Source: Clostridiales bacterium (lineage in GTDB: Bacteria; Bacillota; Clostridia; Christensenellales; Aristaeellaceae). Taken from it: a stretch of 50,779 nucleotides of DNA. Positions within the stretch are counted from its first letter, which is position 1. Each line of letters opens with the position of its first letter. The notes under the pieces are model-generated. The model saw only the letters and a program-made list of their open reading frames with translations. It was not told the origin of the DNA and searched no databases. The stretch covers positions 1-50,779 of the forward strand of contig SVGO01000006.1 of the NCBI GenBank assembly GCA_015056305.1. The letters run 5' to 3'. The translations under genes were made by a program, and so were the position numbers. Positions 19,143 to 49,112 of the stretch are shown here, piece after piece.

Positions 19143-19309
19143 GGGGAAACTTTCAACTCTGCTTTCTGTGTGGATTCTGATATCCTGCGGATCTTTCCGC
19201 AGAAATATCATTGGTATATCATACCATGTTTTGTTCCGATTTGCAACAAAGCCAAAGGATCTTCACGTCTGACCCGGACGCTTTCTTCTTCGAGCAGAGC
19301 CTCTGACAC

Positions 19310-25585: not shown

Positions 25586-25624
25586 AAAAAGACCTTGAAG
25601 GAGCAATCCTTCAAGGTCTTTTTT
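25586..25624. terminator. Rho-independent terminator between convergent genes
   Basis: AAAAAGACCTTGAAGGAGCAATCCTTCAAGGTCTTTTTT. Confidence 0.85.
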
Positions 25625-25631
25625 ATGTCCG

Positions 25632-32253: not shown

Positions 32254-32377
32254 TTAGATTTTTGCTCTATGCCATACAAAAAGACCTTGAGGGATTGCTC
32301 CTTCAAGGTCTTCATTGTTTGATTGTGATTGAGGATCAGTCACTTTGCCTCATAGAGGATCTAAGAGGTTGCCCCGG
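32254..32377. repeat. Left copy of 124-bp direct repeat flanking the LRR/AAA+ island
   Basis: TTAGATTTTTGCTCTATGCCATACAAAAAGACCTTGAGGG...GATCTAAGAGGTTGCCCCGG; 122/124 identical by eye to 47768-47891. Confidence 0.95.
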
Positions 32378-32424
32378 AACATGGAGCAAAACCTTGTATA
32401 TATCCATATTGATCGCTGTTCTCA

Positions 32425-32937
32425 CTATCCGTCAGAAGATTTGCAGATAAACTGCTCCTGCCAGCTCTCGATATTCATCGACTTCCCATTTCTGAATGTT
32501 CCGATTATCCTCCAGCGGAATATCTCCACATCTGTGCAGCCGAAAAACGCCGACCCACTCACCTTCGTTCTTTCGGGAATCAATATTCTTCTCAGTTCTC
32601 CGCAGTTTTCAAAGGCATTTGCACGAATCATATTCAGCTTCTCATTCAGCCTTACATTGTAAAGTTGTGCACACTCTGCAAATGCCTGCTTTCCGATGAC
32701 CCTCATCGAATCGGGCATAATCACATTGCGGATTACCCGGTTGCCGTAGAACGCTTTCTCGCCAATGCGCGTCACCGGGTATCCATCCAGACTTTCTGGA
32801 ATTATCACATTGCTGTCCTTGCCTTCATAGCCCATGATTTCGGATTCTGAAGGTTCCATTGTCTTTAGGTCATCCAAAATCCTGTACCAATAGTCCCCCT
32901 CACAGCAGTACATCTCTTCTTTCCTGCACAGATTCAT
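32425..32937 (-). CDS. Leucine-rich repeat (LRR_5/BspA-type) protein
   Basis: SLDGYPVTRIGEKAFYGNRVIRNVIMPDSMRVIGKQAFAECAQLYNVRLNEKLNMIRANAFENCGELRRILIPE; no signal peptide evident. Confidence 0.82.
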   Translation of the reverse strand: MNLCRKEEMYCCEGDYWYRILDDLKTMEPSESEIMGYEGKDSNVIIPESLDGYPVTRIGEKAFYGNRVIRNVIMPDSMRVIGKQAFAECAQLYNVRLNEKLNMIRANAFENCGELRRILIPERTKVSGSAFFGCTDVEIFRWRIIGTFRNGKSMNIESWQEQFICKSSDG

Positions 32938-32949
32938 ATACATCCCTCC

Positions 32950-33108
32950 TTATATGCGCTGCCTTCTATGATGCAGCGGTGCCGGATCGATCCACAACAG
33001 TTCATCAAACGCTTTCGTACGCGACTGGCGTCCGTCATCGATCCGCCTATACTCTGATTCAGAAAATCTACCACATACGCACTCTTCGTTTAATTTCTTA
33101 ACACCCAT
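32950..33108 (-). CDS. Possible small protein (52 aa), island gene
   Basis: ATG at 33108: MGVKKLNEECVCGRFSESEYRRIDDGRQSRTKAFDELLWIDPAPLHHRRQRI*; fills the gap between two same-strand genes; weak SD. Confidence 0.35.
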   Translation of the reverse strand: MGVKKLNEECVCGRFSESEYRRIDDGRQSRTKAFDELLWIDPAPLHHRRQRI

Positions 33109-33181
33109 CGAAACTCTATCTCTTCATGCTCTGCCATACGGCATGCCAGTCATCTATGTCATTTTTCGGTACTTCGGGCGC

Positions 33182-34963
33182 TCATTTGTCCCTTCCGTTC
33201 CTCGCGAGGGCAAAAGCCAGCGCAGGATAGCCGATCATATTCGCAGCGCAGTTTACAGCATTAAGCAACCTACTACAGCCAGCCCAGCTTTGCCTGAACA
33301 AGTGACGCTTTCTCTTTTCTTTCTTCATCTCTGCCGTGTTGGCCAGAAGGAACGCCCTACAGCAAAGCAGCAGCTGATCATCCTTGTCTTTGCCGTCTTC
33401 TTCATGCAGACAGATATGCGCCGCATCCAGGATGAACGTGTGAATCAATCCATCATCATATGCGTCCGTCAAAGACATGCTCCCAATCGCGCTCATGAAT
33501 CTGCGGCGGATATACGTCGCTGCTGCCCAGCATACCGAATTCAGATCGCGGCCGGTGCTGTCCTCTTCGAATAAAAACGGAAAATTGGAAAAGACCAGGG
33601 GATCTCGACGGATTTCCTGCCTGACGCAGGCAGCCAGATTGCGGGCCGCCTCGTTCACGAGGCGATTCACACCCATGGCATAGATCCGCAGACTGCCTTC
33701 GACGCCGGCACGAACGCAGAGCAAACAGCACAGATCACGCAGCGCTTTTCTCCGTTGCAGATTCAAAAAGAACACCCGCAGCCATACATAGATCCAAGCC
33801 AAAGAATAACCGAACGTTTTGATAAAGCGCTTTCTGTCTGCAAACGAGACAAAAATACTTTCAAAATCCTTCCAGTGGATATACTGATCCGGAAATTCGC
33901 GCGCCATTTTGTAGTTCCGCTGTCCCCGGCGAATCATGCGTACGACGTTTCTTCCGCTCCGTCCGCCAGTCATCCGATCGACCAAATCCACCAGACTGTC
34001 GACGTCCAGCTCATCCTCCTTTACGCAGCAATCATACGCTTCATGAACAAACGTACTGCATATGCTGCGATACTTCTTTCGATCAAATTCGATACTGACG
34101 ACACCATGATTACCGTCGGCAGCCAGCCAGACCAGAATGCTATGGCCGAAAGCAGAACTCAGCGCAAGCTGACTGATAAGGGTTCCCTGAATAGTCATCT
34201 TCTCGATCAGCTCATGACGTTCTTCCCGGTCATATTCATACAGAGTAATGACGCCATCGCTACCGGCGACAGCGGCTGTGCTGTTCTCTCGGGAGAGCGC
34301 AATGGCCGTCGCCCCTTCTTCCCGGAGCATCTGCCATGTGTTTCCAAAGTCGGGCGAGAAGAATACGCTTCCCCGGGCGCCCATCGCAAGTGTGCCGTCG
34401 TGAGAGGACTGAAGATCAACCATCATCTCGCCTTCCTTGGGCACGCTTGGAAAATGCAGAATACGAAGAAAATCGATTCTCCGGTCATATGTCAGCGCCG
34501 TCTCTTCGTTTGCAGCCATGATATACTTGCCCGCATGGCAGCGCATGCGCGACGTCTGCTGAATCAGCAGATTTCCATCAGCACCGACGCCAATCCCATT
34601 TTCCCGATGAATGACGCCAGGGCTCGTTATTCCTGCTGTATGCACCCGGTTGATCTTTGTACAGGAATACATATTATAATCATATACATGCGAACATAAT
34701 CCGTCCCAGACTGCCGCTTCATGCCGGGCCGCGCGAACCGAGCGCAGATAAAGAACAAATCTGCCAAGTTGATCTGTGATACAGTCCAGCGTTCCTCCGG
34801 CGGGAATGCCATAAACAAACGGTGTTTCACTGATATAAAGCTTCAGATTCTGTCCGGTTTTGTTGCGATAACGGGTATACACCATCTCAACGGCAGAAGT
34901 ATTGCAGCAAAGAACGAGATGCACATGCGTATCAATGACAATCTCATTCAAGTTATTTACCAA
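33182..34963 (-). CDS. Uncharacterised island protein: N-terminal beta-propeller-like (Asp-box) region, C-terminal helical region
   Basis: TTG start (LVNNLNEIVID...) 8 nt after AGGAGG; Asp-box-like SPDFGNTW; repeated short beta segments then a long helical C-terminus. Confidence 0.65.
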   Translation of the reverse strand: MVNNLNEIVIDTHVHLVLCCNTSAVEMVYTRYRNKTGQNLKLYISETPFVYGIPAGGTLDCITDQLGRFVLYLRSVRAARHEAAVWDGLCSHVYDYNMYSCTKINRVHTAGITSPGVIHRENGIGVGADGNLLIQQTSRMRCHAGKYIMAANEETALTYDRRIDFLRILHFPSVPKEGEMMVDLQSSHDGTLAMGARGSVFFSPDFGNTWQMLREEGATAIALSRENSTAAVAGSDGVITLYEYDREERHELIEKMTIQGTLISQLALSSAFGHSILVWLAADGNHGVVSIEFDRKKYRSICSTFVHEAYDCCVKEDELDVDSLVDLVDRMTGGRSGRNVVRMIRRGQRNYKMAREFPDQYIHWKDFESIFVSFADRKRFIKTFGYSLAWIYVWLRVFFLNLQRRKALRDLCCLLCVRAGVEGSLRIYAMGVNRLVNEAARNLAACVRQEIRRDPLVFSNFPFLFEEDSTGRDLNSVCWAAATYIRRRFMSAIGSMSLTDAYDDGLIHTFILDAAHICLHEEDGKDKDDQLLLCCRAFLLANTAEMKKEKRKRHLFRQSWAGCSRLLNAVNCAANMIGYPALAFALARNGRDK

Positions 34964-35010
34964 ATTGCTCGCCTCCTTTGTTTTGCAGCGTTTGGGCACG
35001 ATATTTCTTG

Positions 35011-35061
35011 AAAAAAACTGCGTGCCGCCGGCAGCCGGAAAAGCCCGGCAGCCGGCAGCAC
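35011..35061 (-). terminator. Rho-independent terminator
   Basis: Minus strand GTGCTGCCGGCTGCCGGGC-TTTT-CCGGCTGCCGGCGGCAC followed by GCAGTTTTTTTC. Confidence 0.75.
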
Positions 35062-35127
35062 ACATAAAAGGGGGGCTGTTTATTGGGCCGCTTTACAGAT
35101 CATATCCGGCACGTTTCTTCTCTCTGA

Positions 35128-35589
35128 CTAATCCAGGCGAGTGCTCTCCGGACGGCCCCAGTCGATATTATATTGAATCGCGTAATTTTCAGCTTCGCTG
35201 TATTCATACACCAGCAGCCTGAGCTTCGCGCATTTATTAAACACATCCTTGCCAATGATCGTAACGCTCTGCGGAATGCGGATCTTGCTCAGATTCGGAC
35301 AGTCGGAAAATGCACGATCGCCGATAAAAATGACACTGCCGGGCATCTCCACCTGCTTAAGATTCTGGCATTCCTGGAAAGCTTCCTCATCGATCGCCGT
35401 CACAAAGGGCGGGATCACCACCTTGCTCATAATCCGATTCTGACGGAACGCACCCTTGCCGATACAGGTCACTTTCCATTCACCGATCATCTCCGGAATG
35501 CACACCTTTTCTTCATTGCCCCAGTACGCCGTTACCTTGACGCAGTCCTGACGAATATGCTCATTGTAAAAAATCTCGAACTGATACAT
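35128..35589 (-). CDS. Leucine-rich repeat (LRR_5) protein
   Basis: IGKGAFRQNRIMSKVVIPPFVTAIDEEAFQECQNLKQVEMPGSVIFIGDRAFSDCPNLSKIRIPQSVTIIGKDVFNKC; start MYQFEIF after GGAGGAGCAGG. Confidence 0.85.
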   Translation of the reverse strand: MYQFEIFYNEHIRQDCVKVTAYWGNEEKVCIPEMIGEWKVTCIGKGAFRQNRIMSKVVIPPFVTAIDEEAFQECQNLKQVEMPGSVIFIGDRAFSDCPNLSKIRIPQSVTIIGKDVFNKCAKLRLLVYEYSEAENYAIQYNIDWGRPESTRLD

Positions 35590-35724
35590 GCCTGCTCCTC
35601 CTTGGTTTTTTCTGATGTTTTCTTTCAGATGCAGTATAAAATAATATGATGATTTGCTCTCCAAAGCTCAGCTAACCGTCCATCTCAGGCGGACAGCAGC
35701 TGCTTTTTGTCAAACCGGCAATCT

Positions 35725-37101
35725 TCACCTCTCCCTCCTGATCCGCTTTTTCCCCCTCCGATTTTTCTCTTCTTTCTTTCTATCCTCATTCCTCATGCGG
35801 ATGCAGCAGCCCATAGACATATGCTGCATATTTCTTTTCCTGGCGAGGCTGTGAGCATATGTATTCTCATTGACGACAAGCGCCGCTCCGCTTTTCCTGT
35901 CAAATGCATGCCAGCTGATCAGCTTCACACTCGACGGTACAATCACATATTTAAGACTTCTGCAGCTGGAAAAGGCTTCTGCTTTGATGCCGCACACGCC
36001 CTCGCCGATCCGGACCGTATGCAGCGCAGTGCATCTGCCAAACACACCGCTTTCGATGTTCTTTACACTGCCGGGAATCCGCACCTCTTCAAGCCGATAA
36101 CATGCCATAAACGCGCAGCTGTCAATCTCTTCAACCTGTTCGGGAAGCTCAATCTTCTCCAGATTCTCGCAGCGATAAAATGCATCAAAATCGATTCGTT
36201 TCAGATTCTTGGGAAACACGATTTCCTTAAGCCCGATGCACTCCCTGAACGCATGCACTCCGATGCGCGTCACGCTCTCGGGCATCACGATCTTTTCAAT
36301 CTCAGCATGCCTGAGAAATGCTTCCCTGCTAATGCCGCTGACCACTTTTCCCCGAATCTTTTCCGGAATGATTACTTCTTTTTTCCTTCTTCCCAGATAC
36401 GCCATCACATCGACCGTGCCGTCCTGATCATCGCCGTGCAGCCTGTATGCAAAGTCGCCTTCAATCCAATCGCCGCACGTATAGAAGAAACCGTTCTCCA
36501 TCGCATACGTCTGCGCATAGGAATTCTCCTCCACCACCAGGGTCAGGTTATAGATATTGGGATAGATCGGCTCCAACTCATCAGGAATGCTGGTTTTCTT
36601 GATATCCATGACGCTGAATCTGGGATACCTTTCATCCTTGTCTGCTTCATCCAGAGCCACTTCTTCAAGAATAATCTCTTTGTCTTTTATTTCCTGTTTC
36701 CAGTCTTGCTTGATCTGCCTGTGAACCTTTCTGAAAATATCAAACGCGCCCTCGTCGATGTGCTCCACACTCGGCGGAATGACCACCTTTTCCAGCCGCC
36801 TGCAATCCGCAAATGCATTCTTTCCAATATGCTTCACGCCCTGTTCGATGACAAACTCCACGACCGGTCTGAATTCTCTGAAGGCATCCTGACCGATTTT
36901 CGTCACCCTGTGATCATCGATCACGCTGGGAATCAGCATGCTGTTTTTCTTCCCCGGTTCATGTATCCAAATTCTCATCTCCGGTCCCGCGCCCATAATC
37001 TCCGCCGTCCCATCCTCAAGCAGGCAGTATACGAAGCGTCCATCCTGCGTATAGCTCTCGACCTCATGTTCCATGCTGTTCTTGGTTTCCTCTTCCGCCA
37101 T
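35725..37101 (-). CDS. Leucine-rich repeat (LRR_5) protein, 458 aa
   Basis: Multiple LRR_5 units, e.g. ISREAFLRHAEIEKIVMPESVTRIGVHAFRECIGLKEIVFPKNLKRIDFDAFYRCENLEKIELPEQVEEIDSCAFMAC; SD AAAGGAGG. Confidence 0.88.
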   Translation of the reverse strand: MAEEETKNSMEHEVESYTQDGRFVYCLLEDGTAEIMGAGPEMRIWIHEPGKKNSMLIPSVIDDHRVTKIGQDAFREFRPVVEFVIEQGVKHIGKNAFADCRRLEKVVIPPSVEHIDEGAFDIFRKVHRQIKQDWKQEIKDKEIILEEVALDEADKDERYPRFSVMDIKKTSIPDELEPIYPNIYNLTLVVEENSYAQTYAMENGFFYTCGDWIEGDFAYRLHGDDQDGTVDVMAYLGRRKKEVIIPEKIRGKVVSGISREAFLRHAEIEKIVMPESVTRIGVHAFRECIGLKEIVFPKNLKRIDFDAFYRCENLEKIELPEQVEEIDSCAFMACYRLEEVRIPGSVKNIESGVFGRCTALHTVRIGEGVCGIKAEAFSSCRSLKYVIVPSSVKLISWHAFDRKSGAALVVNENTYAHSLARKRNMQHMSMGCCIRMRNEDRKKEEKNRRGKKRIRRER

Positions 37102-37155
37102 ATCAGAATTCCTCCTTTAGTGTTTTGTTTCATCTGTTTCGCCATGCGGCGTTTG

Positions 37156-37953
37156 TCATGTCCCGTATCCTGCCTCCTGTCCGATCTGATTTCTATATGC
37201 GTCGAGCTCATATTTTGCCTCCCAAAGCAGATATAGCCAATGCATATGCTTTGCCTTCAGGCTCGCCTCATCCAGATGAATCAAGTCCTCCCACTCTTCC
37301 TGCGTCAGATTTTCCAGCATGCGCTTATCGGAATATTCTCCATATTGCAGTTCACGCAGGCTGAACATCTGGCGGATTGTCAGTTGATACAGACCGATGG
37401 AGACCTTCCTGTCTGCCTCGATCACAGCAGAAAGCAGCGAAACGTAGGTTTTACCGTGTTTTTTCCTCAGTCTTTCGTCGCGGATCATCCAATCAAGTGT
37501 TTTCATATACTCGTTATAAACAGCAGCAAGACTCTGCGTCCTGTATGCAAGGACATCGACAGTCTGCGGATCGAACCCGTAACCCGACCATCTGAACACA
37601 GCATTTTCATAGCCCAGATTCTGTGCTGCATGCATTGCGCTGGTCCTCATTGATTCCATGTGCTGCATATCCAGCGGCAAGCACTCCTGATAATCGCCGT
37701 ATATGCGCATATACAGGCACGGGTTTTTCTCCTTCGCGGCGTCAAGAATCTGTTCAAACGTCCTCAGCTGCCCAAGCTGTATATTCAGACATGTGCCGGC
37801 TGTATCGGCCATCTTCGTCACTGCGTCGCAAGAATAATATGACATCAGCAGCCTATAATCACGGCTCAGCACATACACCCCAAAGAGCACAATGATCAGC
37901 AGCACCAATACGAACCGCCGCCTCCTGCCCCGTATCAAAGCAGGTATTTTCAT
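37156..37953 (-). CDS. Uncharacterised single-TM island protein
   Basis: MKIPALIRGRRRRFVLVLLIIVLFGVYVLSRDYRLLMSYYSCDAV...; promoter-like element upstream. Confidence 0.6.
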   Translation of the reverse strand: MKIPALIRGRRRRFVLVLLIIVLFGVYVLSRDYRLLMSYYSCDAVTKMADTAGTCLNIQLGQLRTFEQILDAAKEKNPCLYMRIYGDYQECLPLDMQHMESMRTSAMHAAQNLGYENAVFRWSGYGFDPQTVDVLAYRTQSLAAVYNEYMKTLDWMIRDERLRKKHGKTYVSLLSAVIEADRKVSIGLYQLTIRQMFSLRELQYGEYSDKRMLENLTQEEWEDLIHLDEASLKAKHMHWLYLLWEAKYELDAYRNQIGQEAGYGT

Positions 37954-38099
37954 ATTTCTGAATTTCCCTTCTGTTTTTATTCTGTTTTGCTTGGCGTCAT
38001 TATAGACCATATTGCGTTTTTAATTTAGTTTTGCAAAAACGAAAAAACACCCGCCTGAGACGCCGGAAGAGCATGTCCTGCAAGTCCGCACTTCTTGTT

Positions 38100-39248
38100 T
38101 CAGTACGCCAACTTCTCGTAAACACCGTAAATATTTACCAGATATTCCGCAGTCTTATCGGCCCTGTGAATCTCATGTTCTTTGCGGTATTCTTCCATCG
38201 CTTCGCAGCGCCTGATTACGTTGTCCACCCGAATCGCGTTCGCCTCATTATGTATTGCGCCGTCTGCATCCCACTTTCTCTTGCAGTCGTCAATTTTCGC
38301 AAACGAACTATAAAACAGCGTTAAGATTTCCTCTGCATATACTGCAGGCGTCACGAGAACAGACGGCGCTGCCGCATTCTTTTCGCATTCGCAAGAAAAC
38401 CACAGCCGGATCAGCACCCATTCCAGCTTATTCATCTGTTCATACATCTTAAACTGTGTATACGGATCCACCTTTTGAGACAGAATCACGAGATACTGAT
38501 GAACAAAGCAGACGAGATACGAAATCTGAGCAATCGTCATGTCCTGCGCAATGCGATCAAAGCGACCCTGCTTTGCATAGACATATGCCATCATCGAGAT
38601 GACCGCGCAGAATTCTTCGTCCTTATACTCCGTCCCCGTCACCAATACCCGATCCTCGCCTTCGTTCCTCTTGGCGGACATTCTGATCTGTTCATTGAAT
38701 CCGATCCTTATTCTGCTTGATGTATCCGCCGATTCGATCACGCGGTAAAGGTATCCCGCCTTTTTCGCCGATGCATTCTCCCGTGTGATTTCGATACGAT
38801 CAATCAGTTCGCATGCCCTCGTGTATGCCTCGTCATCCGTTTCCGGCCTTATTACAGCCAGACAGCGGAAAAAATTCTTCCAAAGCACGCATTTTTCAAA
38901 GTCATCTTTCCCGTATTCCATCTTCTTTCTGAAAGCACGGATGTATCTCATCTCATCCTTATAAGTCCCAATACTCCGGCACTGCTTCATAAAGGACTCC
39001 ACACTGAATATCGCCTCGTACGCCAGTTTTCGCATCGTCAGCCAGTTTTCCAGCCCTTTTCCGCTGGTCTGCGCCAAAGCCTGCCCGATCATCCATTCTT
39101 CATCCGCCAGCAGATCCAACGCTTCCCCATTCTCGTCTTCCAACGCCATGCTCATCAGCGTCAGCACCTCTCCGATCATCCATCCGCTGCTTCTCAGCGC
39201 TATGCAGCGCATGATCAACTCGTATATGTTTCCCTCATACTGTGCCAT
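38100..39248 (-). CDS. Uncharacterised helical island protein (paralog family member C, no TM)
   Basis: Shares YIRAFRKKMEYGKDDFEKCVLWKNF and EEFCAVISMMAYVYAKQG...DMTIAQISYLVCFVHQYLVIL with the 39389 and 44830 proteins. Confidence 0.68.
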   Translation of the reverse strand: MAQYEGNIYELIMRCIALRSSGWMIGEVLTLMSMALEDENGEALDLLADEEWMIGQALAQTSGKGLENWLTMRKLAYEAIFSVESFMKQCRSIGTYKDEMRYIRAFRKKMEYGKDDFEKCVLWKNFFRCLAVIRPETDDEAYTRACELIDRIEITRENASAKKAGYLYRVIESADTSSRIRIGFNEQIRMSAKRNEGEDRVLVTGTEYKDEEFCAVISMMAYVYAKQGRFDRIAQDMTIAQISYLVCFVHQYLVILSQKVDPYTQFKMYEQMNKLEWVLIRLWFSCECEKNAAAPSVLVTPAVYAEEILTLFYSSFAKIDDCKRKWDADGAIHNEANAIRVDNVIRRCEAMEEYRKEHEIHRADKTAEYLVNIYGVYEKLAY

Positions 39249-39388
39249 GCGTGTTTCCTTCCGATCATCGTCTTTTCTTCATGATAACTTTTTGTCTGCA
39301 CAGATGTGAAAAGAGCTGTCAGGTGTCCTTTTTGATCGGACATCTGACAGCACGATCTATGCAGGCCGGATACGGCCCGACCATTTTC

Positions 39389-40495
39389 TCAGGCGAACAC
39401 CTGACGACGGAGCTTATTCGTCGTCATGTTATACATGCGATTCAGGTCCTTATCCAGTTGCTTCTCCATGGCTTTCTGCTTCTTCAGCGCCTGGGGGAAT
39501 ACGAAACGTTCAATGTACTTCGCCATGCGGCGTGCGCCTGCAGCTGCCTTATGCAGATTTTGAACACTATCCTTTGCCAATTCGGCACTAGCCTCCTTGC
39601 AGGAATTAAACATATCCGCGAAAACTGTCAGCATCCCAAGAGTCGCTACGCACCAGCAGATCTCCAGAAACAAATTTCCACTAAAAGCGTTCAATACAAA
39701 TGTCCAAAATTCGATGCCAATCACGCACAAGACCACGCAACTAAGAATCTTCAGAGCACAATACACGCTCTCTTCAATCACTTCGTCACGATGCGCGTTC
39801 GCCAGGATCTTGATGCGCTCATCATTGGCGCACGTCAGCACAGCCGTCTCCTCAATCGTCATGCTCACAGGCACGCCCTCAATCTCACCCTTCTCCTTCA
39901 AAATATACATCTGCATTGCCATCAGCGCGCGGTACTCCATCTCATTGCCGTTCACCTGCTGCAGCAGCCAGGCCGCATCGCTGCCCGTCTCCATCTGCTC
40001 AAGCGCTTCCGCCTGATTCTCCAGGCCAGTCAGCATCATACGATTATCCTTCACGATCTTGTACGCCAGATTGCGCATCCAAATGGCACGCACCTCCTCG
40101 TTTTCCTTCGTGATCGTCATCTCGCTGATCTCCTTATACAGCGTCGTCTTAGCGTTCTCGCCCTCCTTATTCTGCATGTCAAGCACCGCAATCGCAAACT
40201 GCTTCCAATATTCAAACTTTTCAGCAGCGCTCTTACCCTCATCCATGCGATTCTGGAACTTCTTGAGGTAGAGGTCGCGATCGCTGCGGGCTTCGTCGAG
40301 ATTCTTTTCAAAGAGCTTGACACCATTCAGCGCACGATACGCCATACTGTTTGCCGTCTCCGTGTCGCAATAAGGGAAGGCTTCCTGATACATCGTCGAA
40401 AGGATTTCCTGAATCGAGTAGTTCTTCTTGAGCATCATGTAGTTCTTGCTCGTCTTGTTCAGCGCGTTCACCTGCGTCTGCGTCATCTTCTTCAT
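39389..40495 (-). CDS. Uncharacterised island membrane protein (paralog family member B)
   Basis: YLKKFQNRMDEGKSAAEKFEYWKQF; EYRALMAMQMYILKEKGEIEGVPVSMTIEETAVLTCANDERIKIL; two TM segments; AAAGGAGATAC SD. Confidence 0.75.
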   Translation of the reverse strand: MKKMTQTQVNALNKTSKNYMMLKKNYSIQEILSTMYQEAFPYCDTETANSMAYRALNGVKLFEKNLDEARSDRDLYLKKFQNRMDEGKSAAEKFEYWKQFAIAVLDMQNKEGENAKTTLYKEISEMTITKENEEVRAIWMRNLAYKIVKDNRMMLTGLENQAEALEQMETGSDAAWLLQQVNGNEMEYRALMAMQMYILKEKGEIEGVPVSMTIEETAVLTCANDERIKILANAHRDEVIEESVYCALKILSCVVLCVIGIEFWTFVLNAFSGNLFLEICWCVATLGMLTVFADMFNSCKEASAELAKDSVQNLHKAAAGARRMAKYIERFVFPQALKKQKAMEKQLDKDLNRMYNMTTNKLRRQVFA

Positions 40496-40555
40496 GTTTG
40501 TATCTCCTTTCGTATTTTCATGTTTGATGGCTGTATTGTATCAAATTTCTTTTTT

Positions 40556-40584
40556 CCGTTTTCGTTTGCAAAAAACGAAAACGG
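40556..40584. promoter_or_regulatory. Perfect 12-bp inverted repeat upstream of the 39389-40495 gene (putative operator)
   Basis: CCGTTTTCGTTT-gcaaa-AAACGAAAACGG, upstream of a TACAAT -10-like box on the minus strand. Confidence 0.6.
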
Positions 40585-40651
40585 ATCTGGCATGCTGTTT
40601 TTGAGTTTTATATAGCCGGGCACAGCGTAACGCCTGTGCCCGGCCCTTGTC

Positions 40652-41188
40652 TTACGGAATAAAATCCTCATCATCCACATCCGTGATCAGCTTGATGAGA
40701 TCAAGCGTATCATCGCCGCCTTCAGCATCGGAGTCATTCTCCTCCAGAAGGCCGTTGGCGATGCGTTCCAGCTCTTCCTCATGGCTCAGGAGGGTAAAGA
40801 TTGCAATTTCCTCCATGCTCTCAAGCTGCTTGGCTGTAACGGGCGCATCCACGATCGGCGCAGAAATATGATAATACACGTCACCGCGCTTATTCTTGAT
40901 GCGCAAATTGCCTACCTTCAGCTTGTCCGTCACCTTCATGCAGTACTGAACAGCCTTCGCATAATGCTGCGGCTTCACCCTGATTCCCGGATACACCTGC
41001 AGGATCACATGATTAATATTCTCGTCAATGATGATTTTCATGAAGTAGCTGTGGTCCTCGGTTAAAATCTCGCACAGATATCCTTCGTAGTTGCAACACG
41101 AAAGGTTCTTGGATGCAGTATTGTAGCCGCTGTTGTGTATAAGGTACTCTTCAATGTTTTCCACGGTTTTGATCTTCATGTCATTCAT
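40652..41188 (-). CDS. YbjN/CesT-chaperone-fold-like protein
   Basis: ILQVYPGIRVKPQHYAKAVQYCMKVTDKLKVGNLRIKNKRGDVYYHISAPIVDAPVTAKQLESMEEIAIFTLLSHEEELERIANG fits the YbjN pattern by eye; SD AGGAGGAG. Confidence 0.6.
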   Translation of the reverse strand: MNDMKIKTVENIEEYLIHNSGYNTASKNLSCCNYEGYLCEILTEDHSYFMKIIIDENINHVILQVYPGIRVKPQHYAKAVQYCMKVTDKLKVGNLRIKNKRGDVYYHISAPIVDAPVTAKQLESMEEIAIFTLLSHEEELERIANGLLEENDSDAEGGDDTLDLIKLITDVDDEDFIP

Positions 41189-41259
41189 TTTGCTCTCCTC
41201 CTGTCGTTTATGTCTTGTTCTTTGTTTCTCTTCTTTGATGTCTGCATTTTATCATTCTC

Positions 41260-41291
41260 TTTCGTTTTTATTTCGCTTTATCAAAACGAAA
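41260..41291. promoter_or_regulatory. Inverted repeat TTTCGTTTT-N14-AAAACGAAA upstream of the 40652-41188 gene (putative operator/promoter)
   Basis: 9-bp perfect arms upstream of a GATAAAAT -10-like box on the minus strand. Confidence 0.5.
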
Positions 41292-41550
41292 TATCGAATT
41301 CCGCCAGGTCATGCCCAGCATATAAAGGCATCCTGTTTTCATAATAAAATACGAAAAAACGGCGGCCTTTCAGTCCATGCGCTCATTGCTGCAAAAAAAC
41401 ATCTATTGCACACAAATAAAACCTCCTGCTGCAGATTTGCTTATTCTGCAGCAGGAAGTTTCTTATTTTTTCTGTTTATTGCAATACAGTCCCGCCCGGC
41501 ATAGCGTTCTCTGTTTTGTGAAGATACTGCGTTCATTCGCAGCACATGGA

Positions 41551-43509
41551 TCACAAGCCGCGCTTGAGTTCTATTTCTTCCACAATCGGCGCTCTGTCAT
41601 TGATCCGTTCATACAGACAATCATAGACTGCGCTGTCATACGGCCCCAATGCCCGCAAACTGTCGGCGTCGGCCTTATCCAGCATACAGATTTTCGACTT
41701 ATTCCTGTATTTCAGGAAATAATTTGAATGATACTGCTTCGGATCAAAGAGAGGTTTTTCTGCCGTGGACAGGAAACCCTTGCGCAGCAAGCGGATATAG
41801 TTGTCTGCAATGCTGTCAATATTCTCCTCGCTGTCGCCGTATACATGCACCATCTGACAGGCTATCTCCAGCTTTTTCTTCCAGCTGTCTATATCGATGC
41901 TGTCCGTTTCATCGGGCATACGCAGGCACTGCGCTTTTTGGACAATCGCCTCGATATCCGAACCGATCATGATGCGCACGTTTTGATGGTTGGCCATTCC
42001 CTGCACGATCTCACGAAGGACCGCTCTATCTCTGCATGTATGATCAAAGAGTATTTTCCTGCCCGTCATTCCACTATTCTTGCCGGCGATCCTTTCCACG
42101 CGATCCATACACTTCAGGAAAATATCAACACACTCGTCTTCATTGGGCAAATAAGTGGCGAATTTCTCATCAATGCGTCCCGGACGGAAGAATTCCTTCG
42201 GCAATCCGCCGATGTCATTGGCCGCCGCAAAGATAAACACCGGCTTGTGATTGTTCTGCATCCATTCCAGCAACTCGGCAAACATGCGCCTGAATGTCGA
42301 ATCGTTGGCTTGTTCTCCGCCGCCTTTCGCACCCTCCATTGCCTTTTCGATCTCATCAATCAGAAGCACACAGGGACTCATTGCCTCCGCCAGTTTAAGC
42401 GTCTCCCGCATCTGACGTTCGCTTTGTCCAACAATTCCTCCCATGATCTTGCCCATACTCATCTTCAAAAGCGGAAGCTCAATCTCTCTGCCTGTGAGTT
42501 TTGCTGCTTCGCTCTTGCCGCAGCCGGGTATACCGCACAGCAATACGCCCTTAGGCGGCTGAACACCCAAATTCCGACGATATGCAGCAGAATTGCTGAG
42601 CGGCTCTTTGATATCAGCAAGCCATTCGTAATAAGATCCCATGCCGCCAAGTTCGCCTTCCGTATCGATCCATTCCAGCAGGCCGCCTTCGAGCTTTTGC
42701 TTCTTTCTTTCAAGGATGATATTCAGAATCTCCTTCTTCTGCTCGTCCGATATCCATGCGTCATCACCCAGCCCCGTCAGAGTCATGATTCTCTGCAGGC
42801 AGATCGAGATCTCTTCCTCTGTAAATCCCGTCAGGCTGGTCACCAGTTCGTCGAGTATTCTTGCCAGGCCGAGCGGATTTCCTGTCTCCGTACAGATCTG
42901 ACTGCGGATATCATACTCATCCGGATAGCCAACTTCGATAATCTCGGTATAGGTTTTCAGCATCGGCGTGAGATTTACTTCGGAAGAATACAGCACGACT
43001 ACCGAACTGCGTATCGCATCCGCATGCTCGTGATTTCTTCCAAGCCTGTTCTCGTTATGATACTCGAGGACATACTTTTCAAGCGCGTTGAACATGTTTC
43101 CCAGCTTCAGATCCTGCTGATACTGATCCGATTGAATATCGCCGGGCATTTTGATGGTCCATATTCTTGGATACTGCAGATCCTTTGCCTCATCCAGTTC
43201 ATCATGATAATCATCGAAATGAATATGACAATAATCGCCTGTACTGCTCTCCCGCTGTTCTCGGATCGACCGAATAAACGTCTCATTGTCCGCTTCCATC
43301 AGCGGCCGGTCCTCCTGCTTCCCATAAATTCCGCGCAGAACAACCAGCGGATGCTTCCTGTCCGCTACAATGCGTTCAATCAGAAAATCCGAATCGGTTT
43401 TGATATACAGAATCGGCGTTCCGCCAAGCATGGCCTTTCTTCCCTGATCAAGGATCCTTTGAACAACGCTGCTGGTCTGGATAAAGGCTGTTTCCGGCAT
43501 AAGGGTCAC
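41551..43509 (-). CDS. AAA+ ATPase, Ycf46-like (degenerate N-terminal domain + active C-terminal AAA)
   Basis: Walker A GVLLCGIPGCGKSEAAKL, GGIVGQSERQMRETLKLAEAMSPCVLLIDEIEKAM (Walker B), sensor/Arg region FIFAAANDIGGLPKEFFRPGRIDEKF. Confidence 0.88.
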   Translation of the reverse strand: MTLMPETAFIQTSSVVQRILDQGRKAMLGGTPILYIKTDSDFLIERIVADRKHPLVVLRGIYGKQEDRPLMEADNETFIRSIREQRESSTGDYCHIHFDDYHDELDEAKDLQYPRIWTIKMPGDIQSDQYQQDLKLGNMFNALEKYVLEYHNENRLGRNHEHADAIRSSVVVLYSSEVNLTPMLKTYTEIIEVGYPDEYDIRSQICTETGNPLGLARILDELVTSLTGFTEEEISICLQRIMTLTGLGDDAWISDEQKKEILNIILERKKQKLEGGLLEWIDTEGELGGMGSYYEWLADIKEPLSNSAAYRRNLGVQPPKGVLLCGIPGCGKSEAAKLTGREIELPLLKMSMGKIMGGIVGQSERQMRETLKLAEAMSPCVLLIDEIEKAMEGAKGGGEQANDSTFRRMFAELLEWMQNNHKPVFIFAAANDIGGLPKEFFRPGRIDEKFATYLPNEDECVDIFLKCMDRVERIAGKNSGMTGRKILFDHTCRDRAVLREIVQGMANHQNVRIMIGSDIEAIVQKAQCLRMPDETDSIDIDSWKKKLEIACQMVHVYGDSEENIDSIADNYIRLLRKGFLSTAEKPLFDPKQYHSNYFLKYRNKSKICMLDKADADSLRALGPYDSAVYDCLYERINDRAPIVEEIELKRGL

Positions 43510-43622
43510 CTCTTTTGTTATTCTTACGGTTTCAGAAGAACATCCTTCACTGGCCTCAGAAGATTTTTGCCATGAGTTCGCCGGCTGTTATTTTGCCAGT
43601 TTTCTTGAGCCTCTCCCGGATT

Positions 43623-44807
43623 TTATTCTTCCGATCCTTCAGGTTCATTCTCCGTATTCAAGTATTCGTCGTATGCATCCTCCAGCGATACATATCTTTC
43701 ACTGGTTTTCATGAAATCGGAATACACACGCCCTTCGCAGTCGAGCACCATATATCCTTCTTCCTTGAACAGGACATCAACGACGGGGTTATCTATCATT
43801 TCCAGCTCGATTTTCTGATTTGCATTGTAGTAACGATGGATCAGCCTGCCATTCTGAATCAGCAGGAAGCCCCTTTTCTTTCCACCTGTGCTGAACGCGC
43901 TGACGTCATTCAAATTCTGCAGATCCCAGTCCTTTTGCCAATTTCCGTTTTTTCTTTCATAAATTCTGAGCATATCTCCGTTATTTGTGAATTGTTCAAT
44001 CTTCTGATCATCGCTTATGCTGACATCGGGCAGGAAATCAATCACATAATTGCCGGCAACATTCATATAGCGGTATTCCCCGCCTTTTATCACTATACTG
44101 TCTATCGGTACTTCATCATCATTCCGCATCAGTTCTATGACTGCCTTTCCATCTCCGGATGCCATTATCTTCACCGTTCGGATTTTTAAGCCGGAGCTGA
44201 GCAATGGATCCTCATAAATCCGATAGCAATAGGGTTCCTCTCTTGCCTTGATCACCAGTTCGTTCTCCACTGTAAATTTGTCTGTAATCGAATCTCCCCA
44301 GGCATAATTCATGGCGTCAAATTCAGACAGTTCACAGATAGCAAGCAATCTGATTGCTTCTGATACGTAATTCCCCTCATCTGCAGACATGATTCCTTCA
44401 GCAATATAAGCAACTTTTTTGTAATAGTTTCCTTTCCTGATATCCTCCGTCAGTTCTTCTTGAAACTTTTCCCAACTGTTATCGTAATATGTTGCTTTTC
44501 CGGACTTCAAATCCATGTACGACGCATGATAGTTTTTCTCGAAAAAGGCATCGAACAGGCGTTTAAGCGCCGCTTCCGCCGTCGTTTCTTCTCCATTATT
44601 TGGGAAACACAGATAATTATACCAGAATTCTTTATTCAGCCTCAAGGCAGGCTCATCGCCGACCATCAGCTTCATAGGACAGCTGTGCGTTTTTGCAAAA
44701 CGACAAAACACTTCCAGCTGTTCATCAATTTGATACGGATCAAAATTCTCTTTCAGATCCAACATATGTACAATGCATTCTCCGTCGATTTTCAGCCTTT
44801 CTATCAT
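43623..44807 (-). CDS. Uncharacterised island protein with beta-rich (propeller-like) C-terminus
   Basis: MIERLKIDGECIVHMLDLKENFDPYQIDEQLEVFCRFAKTH...; C-terminal repeated beta strands (NGDMLRIYERKNGNWQKDWDLQNLNDVSAF...GFLLIQNGRLIHRYY); start uncertain (44807 or 44873). Confidence 0.62.
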   Translation of the reverse strand: MIERLKIDGECIVHMLDLKENFDPYQIDEQLEVFCRFAKTHSCPMKLMVGDEPALRLNKEFWYNYLCFPNNGEETTAEAALKRLFDAFFEKNYHASYMDLKSGKATYYDNSWEKFQEELTEDIRKGNYYKKVAYIAEGIMSADEGNYVSEAIRLLAICELSEFDAMNYAWGDSITDKFTVENELVIKAREEPYCYRIYEDPLLSSGLKIRTVKIMASGDGKAVIELMRNDDEVPIDSIVIKGGEYRYMNVAGNYVIDFLPDVSISDDQKIEQFTNNGDMLRIYERKNGNWQKDWDLQNLNDVSAFSTGGKKRGFLLIQNGRLIHRYYNANQKIELEMIDNPVVDVLFKEEGYMVLDCEGRVYSDFMKTSERYVSLEDAYDEYLNTENEPEGSEE

Positions 44808-44829
44808 CGCGTCGTCGCCCCCTGGTATT

Positions 44830-45996
44830 TTATAGCGGTCTTCTGTCGATATTTTTTCTGCTGATTCTTGCACGCTCTTTCAAATATGCTTCGTTTGCTC
44901 TCTTGTCAGAAAGCAGGTGTTGAATCGTTCTGACAAAGTATTCCCTGGCCTGCTTCATAACCGAATGCGCGCCGGCCATATATCTTCTGCCGATGCCGCG
45001 AAGACCTTCCTGAATATCCGAAGTTTTCAGAACATGTGCAGACATAATCATATTTCTCTCTTCGCTCCACGTCCGCATTCCCTTTGTCATGGCAAACAGC
45101 GTGCCCATGACCGCATTAAGAATCGCCGGCATGCTCTTCATGAAACCGAATACGCCGAATATTACCGTCATTGCGCCGGAAACCATCGCAGCAACCAAAA
45201 GCGTGCCCGTCACCATGCTCAGCATATTCAGCCTGCTTTCTCCGGCTGCGCTTGCTCCTTCCTGGCTTCCTGTGCCGCCGGCGATGCGCAGCCGTTCAAA
45301 CTCCCCGCATACCGCCACGGCCGTCTGCTGCAGCGTTATATCCACCGGAATATCGGATGCGTATTCCTGATTCTTTATGCCCGTGTAGATCAGCATCGCA
45401 GCAATCGCGCGATACTCACAATACATCTCCTTCTCGGTTTCCAGCCCGATCCGGACAATCAGGCTGTCCATCTGATTTTCTTTCGCCGCCGTTTCCATTT
45501 CGTCTGCATGCGCCGGAAGCTCAGCAAACAATATCCCGCAATGTCTCAGTGCATGGAGCGCCGTCTCCCGGACCTGCTTGAGCAGCTCCGGCGTAATCTC
45601 GTCTGAAATTCCCCTTTGCTCGATCTTCACCAGCGTGTCACAGTAATCACAGTTTTCCCCATGGAGCTGCGCGGTGGAAGCAGAAACTGCGGCAGCCGTC
45701 TCCATCCAGAATATATACTTTTCCCGATCGTTCTTTCCTTCTTCCATTCTTCTGGCAAATTCCATCAGATACTCGCTTGCATGATTTGCCGCCTGTTGAT
45801 ACGCCTGATCAAACTGCCGGATACACCCGAGCAGACTGTCGGCCATGATGTATCCCTGCTCCATGGTCTTGTCTTCCAGTTTTTCAACGTAAATCTGCGC
45901 AAGGATATCCCTCGCGCTCATATCGTTTACCTTTGCGTTCATATACGCCCCGGTCTGTTCGGCGATCCCGTCAAACATACTCCCGGTATATTTCAT
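44830..45996 (-). CDS. Uncharacterised island membrane protein (paralog family member A)
   Basis: YLMEFARRMEEGKNDREKYIFWMETAAAV; EYRAIAAMLIYTGIKNQEYASDIPVDITLQQTAVAVCGEFERLRI; two TM segments; SD GGAGGT. Confidence 0.75.
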   Translation of the reverse strand: MKYTGSMFDGIAEQTGAYMNAKVNDMSARDILAQIYVEKLEDKTMEQGYIMADSLLGCIRQFDQAYQQAANHASEYLMEFARRMEEGKNDREKYIFWMETAAAVSASTAQLHGENCDYCDTLVKIEQRGISDEITPELLKQVRETALHALRHCGILFAELPAHADEMETAAKENQMDSLIVRIGLETEKEMYCEYRAIAAMLIYTGIKNQEYASDIPVDITLQQTAVAVCGEFERLRIAGGTGSQEGASAAGESRLNMLSMVTGTLLVAAMVSGAMTVIFGVFGFMKSMPAILNAVMGTLFAMTKGMRTWSEERNMIMSAHVLKTSDIQEGLRGIGRRYMAGAHSVMKQAREYFVRTIQHLLSDKRANEAYLKERARISRKNIDRRPL

Positions 45997-46272
45997 ATAT
46001 ATACCTCCGACATCGAACGACTGAATTTAATTTCACTGCGCTTATTCGCCTATTCCTGATGCATGCCTTTTCCCTGCGCTTTTCTTCAGTATCATAAAGC
46101 ATATCTCCCTTTATGATCAGTATTTTGCCTCTGCATCTTCCAGCGCTGCCTGGTCATTATCTGATAAACACACAATTATTCTTTGCTTCCCGTCGATGTA
46201 TTTTCTCTGTATGAAAAAATTATACAACCTTCCAATCAGTTCATTTCGTTTATCAAGAATAAAATTGTCTGT

Positions 46273-47109
46273 TTATACCTTTATATCTTCAAGCTCACGG
46301 ATACGTGCATTCATTCTGTCAATGCGTTCTTTCAGCTTTTTCTTTATTTGTCCCTTTTTATTCCACTTTTTCATTCTCTTTTTCTCTTCGTTTTTAAATT
46401 CTTCATTCATTCTATCAATCTCTTGATTCGTTATTTCAATTTCCTCTTTCAGTTTATCTATATCATTTTTGATTTCATTATATTTCGCTTCGAAGTCATC
46501 ATCGTCATATTTTCTTTTATCTTCCAGATAATTAGATGCAGAATCATACTCTCTTTGTGCAATGAATTGCAAAATCTTCTGATCATTATGCGAACTATAA
46601 TCAGAGTATCCTGCTTTTTTCAGCAGCCGCTCCGCGTCATATTTGCTCAATTCCAGATTTATGATAATTTTAAACAGCGTCTTCTTTCTGGGATTCTTTC
46701 CCAGCTTCATAGAGCTCCATACACTTCCTGTTATATCTGCATCGCCATAAAATCGAACAACATCATATTCATCTTTGATTCTTAAAGGCCTGCGTTCTTT
46801 CTCCGCCCTTTTTCGGTTTTTTTCAATTGTTTTTTCCTCTAGCCTGTATTTTTCTCCAAATCTGCGAATCAGGCGGCAAATCATTTCAAACAGCGTTTCT
46901 GCCTTGCTTTGATTTGCCTCTTGTTCAAGCGCTATTCTCTCCGATTCCGGAATATCCGGAGGAGCAAAATCTTCATCTGAATACACCGCTGCCTGATTCA
47001 GCGTAAAGGCATCCGGATTTTTTTCCATAGCATACTGCAGATTACGCCGTTCCTCTTCATGGATCAACAGACGATTTGACATCTCATCCATAGATTTTCT
47101 TCCCTTCAA
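46273..47109 (-). CDS. HTH-like + coiled-coil island protein
   Basis: ITGSVWSSMKLGKNPRKKTLFKIIINLELSKYDAERLLKKAGYSDYSSHND resembles XRE-type HTH plus the trailing 'LLKKAGY' helix; C-terminal coiled coil. Confidence 0.65.
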   Translation of the reverse strand: MKGRKSMDEMSNRLLIHEEERRNLQYAMEKNPDAFTLNQAAVYSDEDFAPPDIPESERIALEQEANQSKAETLFEMICRLIRRFGEKYRLEEKTIEKNRKRAEKERRPLRIKDEYDVVRFYGDADITGSVWSSMKLGKNPRKKTLFKIIINLELSKYDAERLLKKAGYSDYSSHNDQKILQFIAQREYDSASNYLEDKRKYDDDDFEAKYNEIKNDIDKLKEEIEITNQEIDRMNEEFKNEEKKRMKKWNKKGQIKKKLKERIDRMNARIRELEDIKV

Positions 47110-47455
47110 CAGACTGGATTTTTGCTCAAAATCAGATCGTTTCCATTCCGTTTTGAATGATACAATTCAGACATTTTATGATCTGACTGACTTTCGATTT
47201 ATTCATAATTTCATTTCAGCAATGACAATCGTACTGAACCTGCTGCAGCCTGCAGATTCTTTATATATTCCTACCGATAAGAGATTTCCGCAATCATTGA
47301 TAGCCGATAACTATGACGCTGTTTTTCGTTTTTTATACTGATTGTATTATAGCATTCAGTTTTTCCGTGTTCAAGCCAGATCTGCAGCCCTCAAATCTAT
47401 TTCATCGCCGATGGCATATAGCGTAAGGCGTTGTATCCGCATAAATAGAAGAAAC

Positions 47456-47490
47456 AGAAAGCCAGCGTGTCCATCATGGTCACGCCGGCT
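47456..47490 (-). terminator. Terminator-like hairpin downstream of the M13 peptidase fragment
   Basis: Minus strand GCCGGCGTGACCATGATGGACACGCTGGCTTTCTGTTTCTTC. Confidence 0.55.
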
Positions 47491-47524
47491 CTCATTATGT
47501 GGCAATTGAGGTTATCTATAGGCA

Positions 47525-47707
47525 TTACCAGACATTCAGGCGGCTTCCCGATGCAAGATACATGTCATCCCCCTCAGCAATATCATAGGCGCTGTGGAAT
47601 TCCTCAAACTGCTGCACGATGGCGTTGGTACACAGATAGTACGGCGGATGGGTACCGGTCTGCAATCTCTGCACAAGGCCTTCTTCCGTTACCAACATGC
47701 GGCACAT
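47525..47707 (-). pseudogene. C-terminal fragment of an M13-family metallopeptidase (PepO/neprilysin-like)
   Basis: ...THPPYYLCTNAIVQQFEEFHSAYDIAEGDDMYLASGSRLNVW* matches the M13 C-terminus pattern (F-x-x-[AY]-[YF]-D-[IV]-x-x-GD-x-MYLA...VW); N-terminal catalytic part absent. Confidence 0.65.
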
Positions 47708-47767
47708 AGCGGTATATGTTCTTACCCAATAAAATCAGAATTTTATTCACTAAAAGTTCAAGTATTC

Positions 47768-47891
47768 TTAGATTTTCGCTCTATGCCATACAAAAAGACC
47801 TTGAGGGATTGCTCCTTCAAGGTCTTCATTGTTTGATTGTGATTGAGGATCAGTCACTTTGCCTCATAGAGGATCTAAGAGGTTGCCTCGG
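47768..47891. repeat. Right copy of 124-bp direct repeat flanking the island
   Basis: TTAGATTTTCGCTCTATGCC...GATCTAAGAGGTTGCCTCGG; same orientation as 32254-32377, 2 mismatches. Confidence 0.95.
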
Positions 47892-47902
47892 GACAAATTT
47901 TC

Positions 47903-48901
47903 TTATTCCCACTCGATGGTGCCGATGGGCTTCGGGGTCAGGTCCAGCAGAACGCGGTTGATGCCCTCGACCTCATGGGTGATGCGGTAGGTGATGTGGT
48001 GCAGCAGTGCGTACGGGATCTCCTCGATGGTGGCGGTCATCGCGTCCTTGGTATTGACAGCACGGATGATGGCCGGCCAGCCTTCGTAGCGGCTTTCGTC
48101 CTTGACGCCAACGCTCTTGATGTCCGGAACGGCGATGAAGTACTGCCAAACCTTCTCGTTCAGGCCGTTCTTCTCGAACTCCTCGCGCAGGATCGCATCG
48201 GCCTCACGCAGCGCATGCAGGCGGTCGCGGGTGATCGCGCCCAGGCAGCGCACGCCCAGGCCCGGGCCCGGGAACGGCTGACGATAAACCATGCCGTGCG
48301 GCAGACCCAGAGCCTCGCCGACCACGCGGACTTCGTCCTTGAACAGCAGCTTGATCGGCTCCACCAGTTCAAACTGCAGGTCCTCCGGCAGACCGCCGAC
48401 GTTGTGATGGGACTTGACAGCCTTCTTGCCTTCGGCAGCCTTCATGGACTCCAGAATGTCGGGGTAGATGGTGCCCTGCGCCAGGAAAGAAATGCCCTCC
48501 AGCTTGCGGGCTTCCTCGGCGAACACGGTGATGAACTCCTTGCCGATGATCTTGCGCTTGCGCTCCGGCTCGGATACGCCGGCCAGCAGGCCAAGGAAAT
48601 GATCGGTCGCATCCACATAGATCAGATTGGCGTCCAGACCATCCTTGAACATCTTGATAACGCCTTCGGACTCATCCTTGCGCATCAGGCCATGATTGAC
48701 ATGCACGCAGACGAGCTGCTTGCCAATGGCCTTGATCAGCAGCGCCGCAACAACGGAGCTGTCCACGCCGCCGGAGAGCGCCAGCAGCACCTTCTTATCG
48801 CCAACCTGCGCACGAACGGCAGCAACCTGCTCCTCGATGAAGGCATTGGCCAGTTCCATCGTGGTGATGCGCGCCATGGATTCGGGACGAATATTGCTCA
48901 T
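47903..48901 (-). CDS. guaA: GMP synthase, ATP-pyrophosphatase/dimerisation portion (no GATase domain)
   Basis: VLLALSGGVDSSVVAALLIKAIGKQLVCVHVNHGLMRKDE...RQPFPGPGLGVRCLGAIT...LDLTPKPIGTIEWE; ORF starts directly before the ATPPase domain. Confidence 0.92.
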   Translation of the reverse strand: MSNIRPESMARITTMELANAFIEEQVAAVRAQVGDKKVLLALSGGVDSSVVAALLIKAIGKQLVCVHVNHGLMRKDESEGVIKMFKDGLDANLIYVDATDHFLGLLAGVSEPERKRKIIGKEFITVFAEEARKLEGISFLAQGTIYPDILESMKAAEGKKAVKSHHNVGGLPEDLQFELVEPIKLLFKDEVRVVGEALGLPHGMVYRQPFPGPGLGVRCLGAITRDRLHALREADAILREEFEKNGLNEKVWQYFIAVPDIKSVGVKDESRYEGWPAIIRAVNTKDAMTATIEEIPYALLHHITYRITHEVEGINRVLLDLTPKPIGTIEWE

Positions 48902-49112
48902 AATAATCACTCCTGTAAATAAATCAAAGAATGAACGATTTACGGAACATATTTTATCACGCTGTCTGCATGATTGTAAATAAAACTGAAAAATTTCCTG
49001 TATGAACGTTCGCCTTTTTAGCATAGCCCATTCTTCGGTTTTTTACGCATATTTACACTAGGAGGCAATTCCGATATAATGACAAGGTATTGCTTGAAAC
49101 CGGGTGATTTTT

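What the first reader, a model, noticed from the sequence alone, without database searches (positions are those of the whole stretch)
32254..47891. 15.6-kb unidirectional AAA+/LRR/propeller/membrane-paralog island bounded by 124-bp direct repeats: candidate undescribed system
All credible genes between the two repeats are on the minus strand and lower in GC than the flanks by inspection. The set comprises an HTH/coiled-coil protein, three members of one unnamed helical family (two with TM pairs), two propeller-like proteins, a Ycf46-like AAA+ ATPase, a YbjN/CesT-like protein, a single-TM protein and three LRR_5 proteins. I recognise no transposase, integrase, phage or secretion-apparatus genes inside. 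An AAA+ motor with paralogous membrane proteins, a chaperone-fold protein and repeat-domain recognition proteins suggests a membrane-associated sensing/remodelling or conflict (defence-like) machine. The function is inference.
Basis: partly seen in the sequence, partly recalled or inferred. Interest (0 to 1): 0.88.

Follow-up and report, generated by a model that had tools for sequence, protein, structure and literature searches.

The report
Rare co-regulated AAA+ membrane gene island
A 15-kb imported block of twelve bacterial genes built around an energy-driven protein-remodelling motor is real, has a sister cluster in an unrelated gut-type bacterium, and carries its own private genetic switch at four promoters, so it is probably an undescribed membrane-associated stress or defence system, although its function is untested.

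Summary
A 15.4-kb, 47% GC segment (flanks 56-59%) lies between direct repeats (125/128 identical) just downstream of guaA. All 12 credible genes are on the minus strand. Three genes are true paralogs, the AAA+ is Ycf46-type, and there are three LRR_5 proteins and no integrase. I went beyond the finding in four ways. (1) A sister cluster exists in an Oscillospiraceae MAG (SIG601) with the order HTH - paralog - PROP2 - ... - AAA+. AAA+ is 42% identical over its whole length. The paralog family is otherwise absent from every genome sample searched. (2) Four island promoters share a 21-bp palindrome, TTTCGTTT-N5-AAACGAAA, exactly 19 bp upstream of the -10 box. At one mismatch or fewer it occurs nowhere else in the 2.6-Mb genome. 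(3) The SIG601 cluster has a different private palindrome in similar geometry, found by a blind scan. (4) Two more distant loci pair Ycf46-type AAA+ genes with the same HTH domain; one also has a LeoBC-type dynamin. Best reading: an inducible, horizontally acquired, membrane-anchored AAA+ remodelling system. Defence or envelope stress is plausible but untested. The propeller and YbjN folds stay unverified, no empty site was found, and the mobility mechanism is unknown.

The parts
32254..32381 (.). left copy of the 128-bp direct repeat; contains a rho-independent-terminator-like hairpin
47768..47895 (.). right copy of the direct repeat; lies just downstream of the guaA stop codon and matches guaA's own terminator region in congeners
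32425..32943 (-). LRRa: LRR_5 protein, 172 aa, no TM segment
33182..35065 (-). PROP1: 627 aa; weak sub-threshold similarity to one glycosylhydrolase model; fold unverified
35128..35664 (-). LRRb: LRR_5 protein
35725..37101 (-). LRRc: LRR_5 protein, 458 aa
37156..38010 (-). TM1: single N-terminal TM protein; the -10 box lies inside the listed start, so the true start is probably Met20 (about 37953)
38024..38044 (-). operator palindrome, 1 mismatch, 19 bp upstream of TATAAT (TM1-LRRc-LRRb-PROP1-LRRa unit)
38100..39248 (-). P1: paralog family member without a TM hairpin
39389..40495 (-). P2: paralog family member with a C-terminal TM hairpin
40560..40580 (-). operator palindrome, perfect, 19 bp upstream of TACAAT (P2)
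40652..41188 (-).
41271..41291 (-). operator palindrome, 1 mismatch, 19 bp upstream of TAAAAT (178-aa gene)
41551..43509 (-). AAA+ ATPase, Ycf46-type core with its own C-terminal extension; Walker A GIPGCGKS, Walker B LLIDEIEKA
43623..44873 (-). PROP2: 416 aa, no Pfam/NCBIfam/PADLOC/PHROG match; conserved next to P3 in SIG601
44830..45996 (-). P3: paralog family member with a TM hairpin; closest to the SIG601 protein (31%)
46244..46264 (-). operator palindrome, 3 mismatches, exactly 19 bp upstream of TATAAT (P3-PROP2-AAA+ unit)
46273..47109 (-). HTHcc: HTH-like domain plus C-terminal coiled coil; candidate regulator, shared with SIG601 and with L189 and L192
47346..47374 (-). ordinary sigma-70-like promoter of HTHcc (TTGAAC-17-TATAAT), without the palindrome
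47525..47697 (-). decayed C-terminal fragment of an M13 peptidase gene, probably insertion debris, not part of the system
47903..49024 (-). guaA (GMP synthase C-terminal part): flanking gene whose 3' end is an integration hotspot in the genus

Best explanation
The segment is a horizontally acquired, self-regulated accessory system. Shown: twelve same-strand genes; a core (HTH - paralog - PROP2 - ... - AAA+) conserved in another bacterial family; and four promoters with one private palindrome at fixed spacing. Inferred: HTHcc is made from an ordinary promoter and binds the palindrome, centred near -42 where the -35 box should be, which is the layout of an activator-dependent promoter. On a signal it switches on P3-PROP2-AAA+, the 178-aa gene, P2, and TM1 with the LRR and PROP1 genes. 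P2 and P3 anchor in the cytoplasmic membrane by a C-terminal hairpin and present helical N-terminal domains to the cytosol. PROP2 acts as adaptor. The Ycf46-type AAA+ ring remodels or extracts the paralog assemblies or whatever they have captured. The LRR and PROP1 proteins lack TM segments and are exchangeable recognition modules; in the sister cluster an Hsp70-like ATPase and a zinc-peptidase-like protein take that place. The trigger is most likely envelope damage or phage attack.
For: Synteny and full-length AAA+ homology with L075. Patchy occurrence: within this genus only in this genome, and 1 of 70 genomes in the SIG601 genus with a strong match. Private operator: 5 matches at <=3 mismatches, all in the island, 0.16 expected; only island sites at <=1 mismatch in the whole genome. 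Fixed 19-bp spacing in all four, 0 of 200,000 shuffles. SIG601 has its own palindrome TTCTGTT-N3-AACAGAA at four sites, with TATAAT 20-21 bp away at three, and none at <=1 mismatch elsewhere in 326 kb sampled. TM hairpins in P2 and P3 and two TM segments in the L075 paralog. Ycf46-type AAA+ plus the same HTH domain recur in L189 and L192; L192 also has LeoBC-type dynamin, HNH and kinase genes, and L189 a Fic/RelB pair.
Against: No function, interaction or expression data. Who binds the palindrome is unknown. The only other full cluster is one MAG. The P and PROP2 models are poor (pLDDT 56 and 38), and Foldseek on P3 found nothing at E <= 0.001. The P-like match in L189 is weak (about 20 bits). 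The pattern was built from three of the sites it then counts. One of the four SIG601 sites lacks a good -10 box at 20-21 bp.
Confidence: 0.5

Rival explanations
1. It is an anti-phage defence system. Membrane-anchored paralogs and cytosolic LRR or propeller sensors detect infection, and the AAA+ motor triggers membrane disruption or clears viral assemblies.
For: Patchy distribution and hotspot location. Exchangeable accessory genes between sister clusters. Related AAA+/HTH loci beside LeoBC-type dynamin, HNH, kinase and Fic/RelB genes. IetA is among the named AAA+ relatives.
Against: No nuclease, toxin or other recognisable effector domain in the window island. IetA scores are far below the curated cut-off (59.5 against 510 bits) and cover mainly the AAA core. 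No phage challenge data.
Confidence: 0.3
2. It is a PSP-like envelope-stress system that repairs or remodels the membrane, working like PspA/AAA+/CesT operons with a different membrane scaffold.
For: Published PSP operons combine PspA with AAA+ ATPases, CesT/Tir-like chaperones and propeller repeats (PMC11237479, read). Here an AAA+, helical membrane-hairpin paralogs and a candidate dedicated regulator occur together.
Against: No PspA/Snf7, PspC, Toastrack or band-7 domain was found in the island. The CesT-like identity of the 178-aa protein is unverified.
Confidence: 0.25
3. It is cargo of an integrative element with unrelated passenger genes, not one machine.
For: Direct repeats, low GC, a pseudogene fragment at the edge, and location at a guaA hotspot. 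The LRR/PROP1 block has no counterpart in SIG601.
Against: Conserved order with SIG601 and one private operator heading four transcription units that cover 10 of the 12 genes.
Confidence: 0.12
4. On how it arrived (compatible with the functional readings): the repeats are a duplicated terminator rather than attachment sites, and the island entered by homologous recombination.
For: The repeat is guaA's terminator region; it stops before the coding end of guaA, next to which the integrases of congeners sit. The hairpin recurs at 25586-25627. No integrase inside.
Against: 128 bp at 98% flanking a low-GC block exactly is also what site-specific integration would leave.
Confidence: 0.4

Closest known systems
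Ycf46-type AAA+ ATPases (PHROG 8638; relatives on cyanobacterial and Bacillus plasmids)
   Same: AAA core and the region before it align; Walker motifs intact
   Different: The window and SIG601 proteins share about 180 extra C-terminal residues and full-length similarity that none of the other hits in 398 phylum genomes has
PSP systems with AAA+ and CesT/Tir partners (PMC11237479)
   Same: AAA+ beside membrane-associated helical proteins, with a candidate regulator
   Different: No PspA/Snf7, PspC or Toastrack; unrelated membrane paralogs
IetAS anti-phage system
   Same: AAA+ of the same broad clade
   Different: No subtilisin-like partner; mainly AAA core similarity
MoxR-vWA ternary conflict systems (PMC7159879)
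   Same: AAA+ switch with variable repeat modules; patchy distribution
   Different: The AAA+ is not MoxR; no vWA protein
LeoABC dynamin-like membrane systems
   Same: LeoBC lies near the related AAA+/HTH locus L192; the SIG601 Hsp70-like protein resembles the LeoBC C-terminus weakly
   Different: No dynamin in the window island

Membership tests
Ycf46-type AAA+ ATPase | AAA domain with intact Walker A and B and clade similarity beyond the AAA core | tested here: met
   PF00004 1e-25; PHROG 8638 4e-56 over residues 220-469; motifs. The clade name rests partly on prior knowledge.
IetAS | AAA+ passing the IetA cut-off | tested here: not met
   59.5 bits against 510
IetAS | adjacent subtilisin-like protease | tested here: not met
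   no peptidase domain in the twelve genes
PSP system | PspA/IM30 or Snf7 homolog | tested here: not met
   no Pfam match at E <= 1
PSP system | CesT/Tir-fold partner | tested here: inconclusive
   178-aa protein has no Pfam, NCBIfam or PDB match
MoxR-vWA ternary system | MoxR ATPase and vWA protein | tested here: not met
integrative element at guaA | integrase gene inside | tested here: not met
   none inside; integrases are beside guaA in four congeners
integrative element at guaA | empty site in relatives | tested here: inconclusive
   EamA/enolase not found next to guaA in congeners
known anti-phage system | protection against phage | not testable with these tools
   needs an experiment

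The most novel reading that the evidence does not exclude
A previously undescribed class of inducible bacterial system in which a Ycf46-type AAA+ motor works on a dedicated family of membrane-hairpin paralogs, each lineage carrying a private operator that diverges in sequence but keeps its promoter geometry, with interchangeable recognition modules (LRR/propeller in one lineage, Hsp70-like ATPase/zinc peptidase in another).
Probability: 0.4. Interest if true: 0.8.

Novelty: new variant of a known kind. Interest (0 to 1): 0.66.

Why it matters
Ycf46-type AAA+ proteins are widespread but have little assigned function in bacteria. This island offers a defined partner set, a candidate regulator and an exact operator, so the function becomes testable by reporter, binding and pull-down assays. 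Similar promoter geometry with different operator sequence in two bacterial families suggests regulator and operator have changed together, as expected for a self-contained transferable module.

Tried and rejected
Membership in IetAS, PSP and MoxR-vWA systems was considered and rejected on tested features. Viral, phage and plasmid collections held no relative of the paralog family, and viral and plasmid collections none of PROP2; viral AAA+ hits were Ycf46-type proteins without the partners. An empty insertion site was sought and not found. The two AlphaFold jobs gave poor models, so the Foldseek list for P3 was not used. The window operator is absent from L075; a blind palindrome scan then found the different one there. 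No similar element was seen in L189. Strict testing of the SIG601 spacing at >=5/6 in all four sites failed because one site has only TAAGAT at 20 bp. Literature searches found no paper describing this combination in the open-access library.

Full report
Observation. The segment is real. Two direct repeats of 128 nt (125 identical) lie 15.5 kb apart at 32254-32381 and 47768-47895. Between them GC is 0.474, against 0.586 and 0.563 outside. Twelve credible genes, all on the minus strand, fill it. Pfam confirms three LRR_5 proteins and one AAA domain. Blastp confirms that 38100-39248, 39389-40495 and 44830-45996 are paralogs. Hydropathy gives a TM hairpin in two of them and one TM segment in 37156-38010; the LRR and PROP proteins have none.

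Boundaries. The right repeat follows the guaA stop codon directly and is guaA's own terminator region, recognisable in congeners. In this genus the guaA 3' end is an integration hotspot: tyrosine integrases (Phage_integrase with Arm-DNA-bind and SAM-like domains in three, a shorter one in the fourth) sit next to it in G005, G011, G017 and G009, and several contigs end within about 150 bases past guaA. The window island has no integrase, and its repeat stops before the coding end of guaA, so it does not look like the product of those integrases. A decayed M13-peptidase fragment lies at the right edge. The left neighbours (EamA, enolase) are not beside guaA in relatives, so no empty site could be shown. 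Recent arrival is inferred from GC and repeat identity; the mechanism is open.

Sister cluster. The paralog family was not found in 60 relatives, nor convincingly in the order sample (396 genomes) or the class sample (388 genomes); the two marginal hits are at E 6e-4 and 5e-4. A pattern scan of GTDB species genomes with a paralog alignment found one relative, in Oscillospiraceae SIG601 (L075). There the order is HTHcc - paralog (31% to P3) - PROP2 (28%) - helical 309-aa protein - Hsp70/actin-like 691-aa protein - AAA+ (42% over 659 columns, E 3e-151) - zinc-peptidase-like 218-aa protein with a 133-aa partner, twice. The Hsp70-like and zinc-peptidase labels rest on weak model hits and motifs. 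In the SIG601 genus 1 of 70 genomes has a strong match, and 1 of 349 in the family sample. The core is thus conserved in order and very patchy in occurrence. The scan relies on short peptide patterns and can miss relatives.

Wider kin. An AAA+ profile against 398 phylum genomes found a dozen Ycf46-type proteins besides the query, none matching full length. Two of ten neighbourhoods examined contain the same HTH domain: L189 and L192 (HMM 1e-9 and 5e-12). Both also have a TM-containing protein beside the AAA+; the L189 one matches the paralog profile only weakly (about 20 bits), the L192 one does not. L192 carries a LeoBC-type dynamin (PADLOC 5e-132), an HNH protein and a kinase; L189 a Fic/RelB pair and Sel1 repeats. 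These are tentative kin.

Regulation. Upstream of TM1, P2 and the 178-aa gene is a palindrome TTTCGTTT-N5-AAACGAAA. In the window, five matches at three or fewer mismatches all fall in the island, 0.16 expected. In the whole genome the only sites with one mismatch or fewer are those three. The pattern was derived from these sites, so the count alone is partly circular. The spacing is not: each palindrome ends exactly 19 bp before a -10-like hexamer, and a fourth, weaker palindrome upstream of P3 has the same 19 bp with a perfect TATAAT. No shuffle of 200,000 gave a common gap. No -35 box is evident; the palindrome centre lies near -42, the position of class II activators (established knowledge). 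HTHcc has an ordinary promoter. By intergenic distances, the four operator-led units cover 10 of the 12 genes (inference). A blind scan of L075 found a different palindrome, TTCTGTT-N3-AACAGAA, upstream of the paralog gene (twice), the zinc-peptidase gene and one more site. TATAAT follows at 20-21 bp in three of four, giving a centre-to--10 distance of 29-30 bp against 30 bp in the window. In 326 kb sampled from that genome it occurs at one mismatch or fewer only there. Similar geometry, different sequence, apparently private to the cluster in both.

Mechanism. Shown: gene set, synteny, private operators, predicted membrane hairpins, intact AAA+ motifs. Inferred: HTHcc activates the operator-led units; the hairpin paralogs assemble at the membrane; the AAA+ remodels or extracts them, with PROP2 as adaptor and LRR/PROP1 proteins as variable recognition modules. 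Trigger and output (envelope stress or phage) are undecided.

Known or new. It is not IetAS, PSP or MoxR-vWA by tested features. Among known things it is closest to AAA+-centred membrane-stress or conflict systems, so I file it as a new variant of a known kind, while noting that the P, PROP2 and HTHcc families and the AAA+ C-terminal extension had no convincing match in the libraries searched.

Noticed in passing
window 47525-47697, minus strand: C-terminal fragment of an M13 peptidase gene (PF01431, 2.5e-6), a pseudogene between the right repeat and HTHcc.
   Followed up: partly
L058, L061, L063, L064 (guaA 3' regions of congeners): The guaA 3' end is a tyrosine-integrase hotspot across the genus; several congener contigs break just past guaA.
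   Followed up: partly
L058 (G005:C76) 1906-2041 and 18686-19296: A second, 74%-identical copy of the guaA terminator region lies about 16.6 kb from guaA, with an integrase in between: a possible analogous island.
   Followed up: no
window 25586-25627: The terminator hairpin of the direct repeat recurs here, suggesting a dispersed terminator sequence.
   Followed up: partly
L192 (G1560:C5): Ycf46-type AAA+ (830 aa) with HTH, TM-containing protein, DUF697 GTPase, LeoBC-type dynamin, HNH and kinase genes in one stretch.
   Followed up: partly
L075 8035-10110: Hsp70/actin-like protein whose C-terminal part weakly resembles the LeoBC dynamin C-terminus (PADLOC 3e-5) and contains a TM-like segment.
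   Followed up: no
G010 C24 and C66 (L059, L060): Two guaA copies in one MAG (about 93% identical to the window protein each): real duplication or mixed strains.
   Followed up: no
L025 (G020:C34) 5956-9741: Another Ycf46-type AAA+ in the same genus, next to a 150-aa protein and a 570-aa protein with a TM-like segment, without paralog-family similarity.
   Followed up: partly
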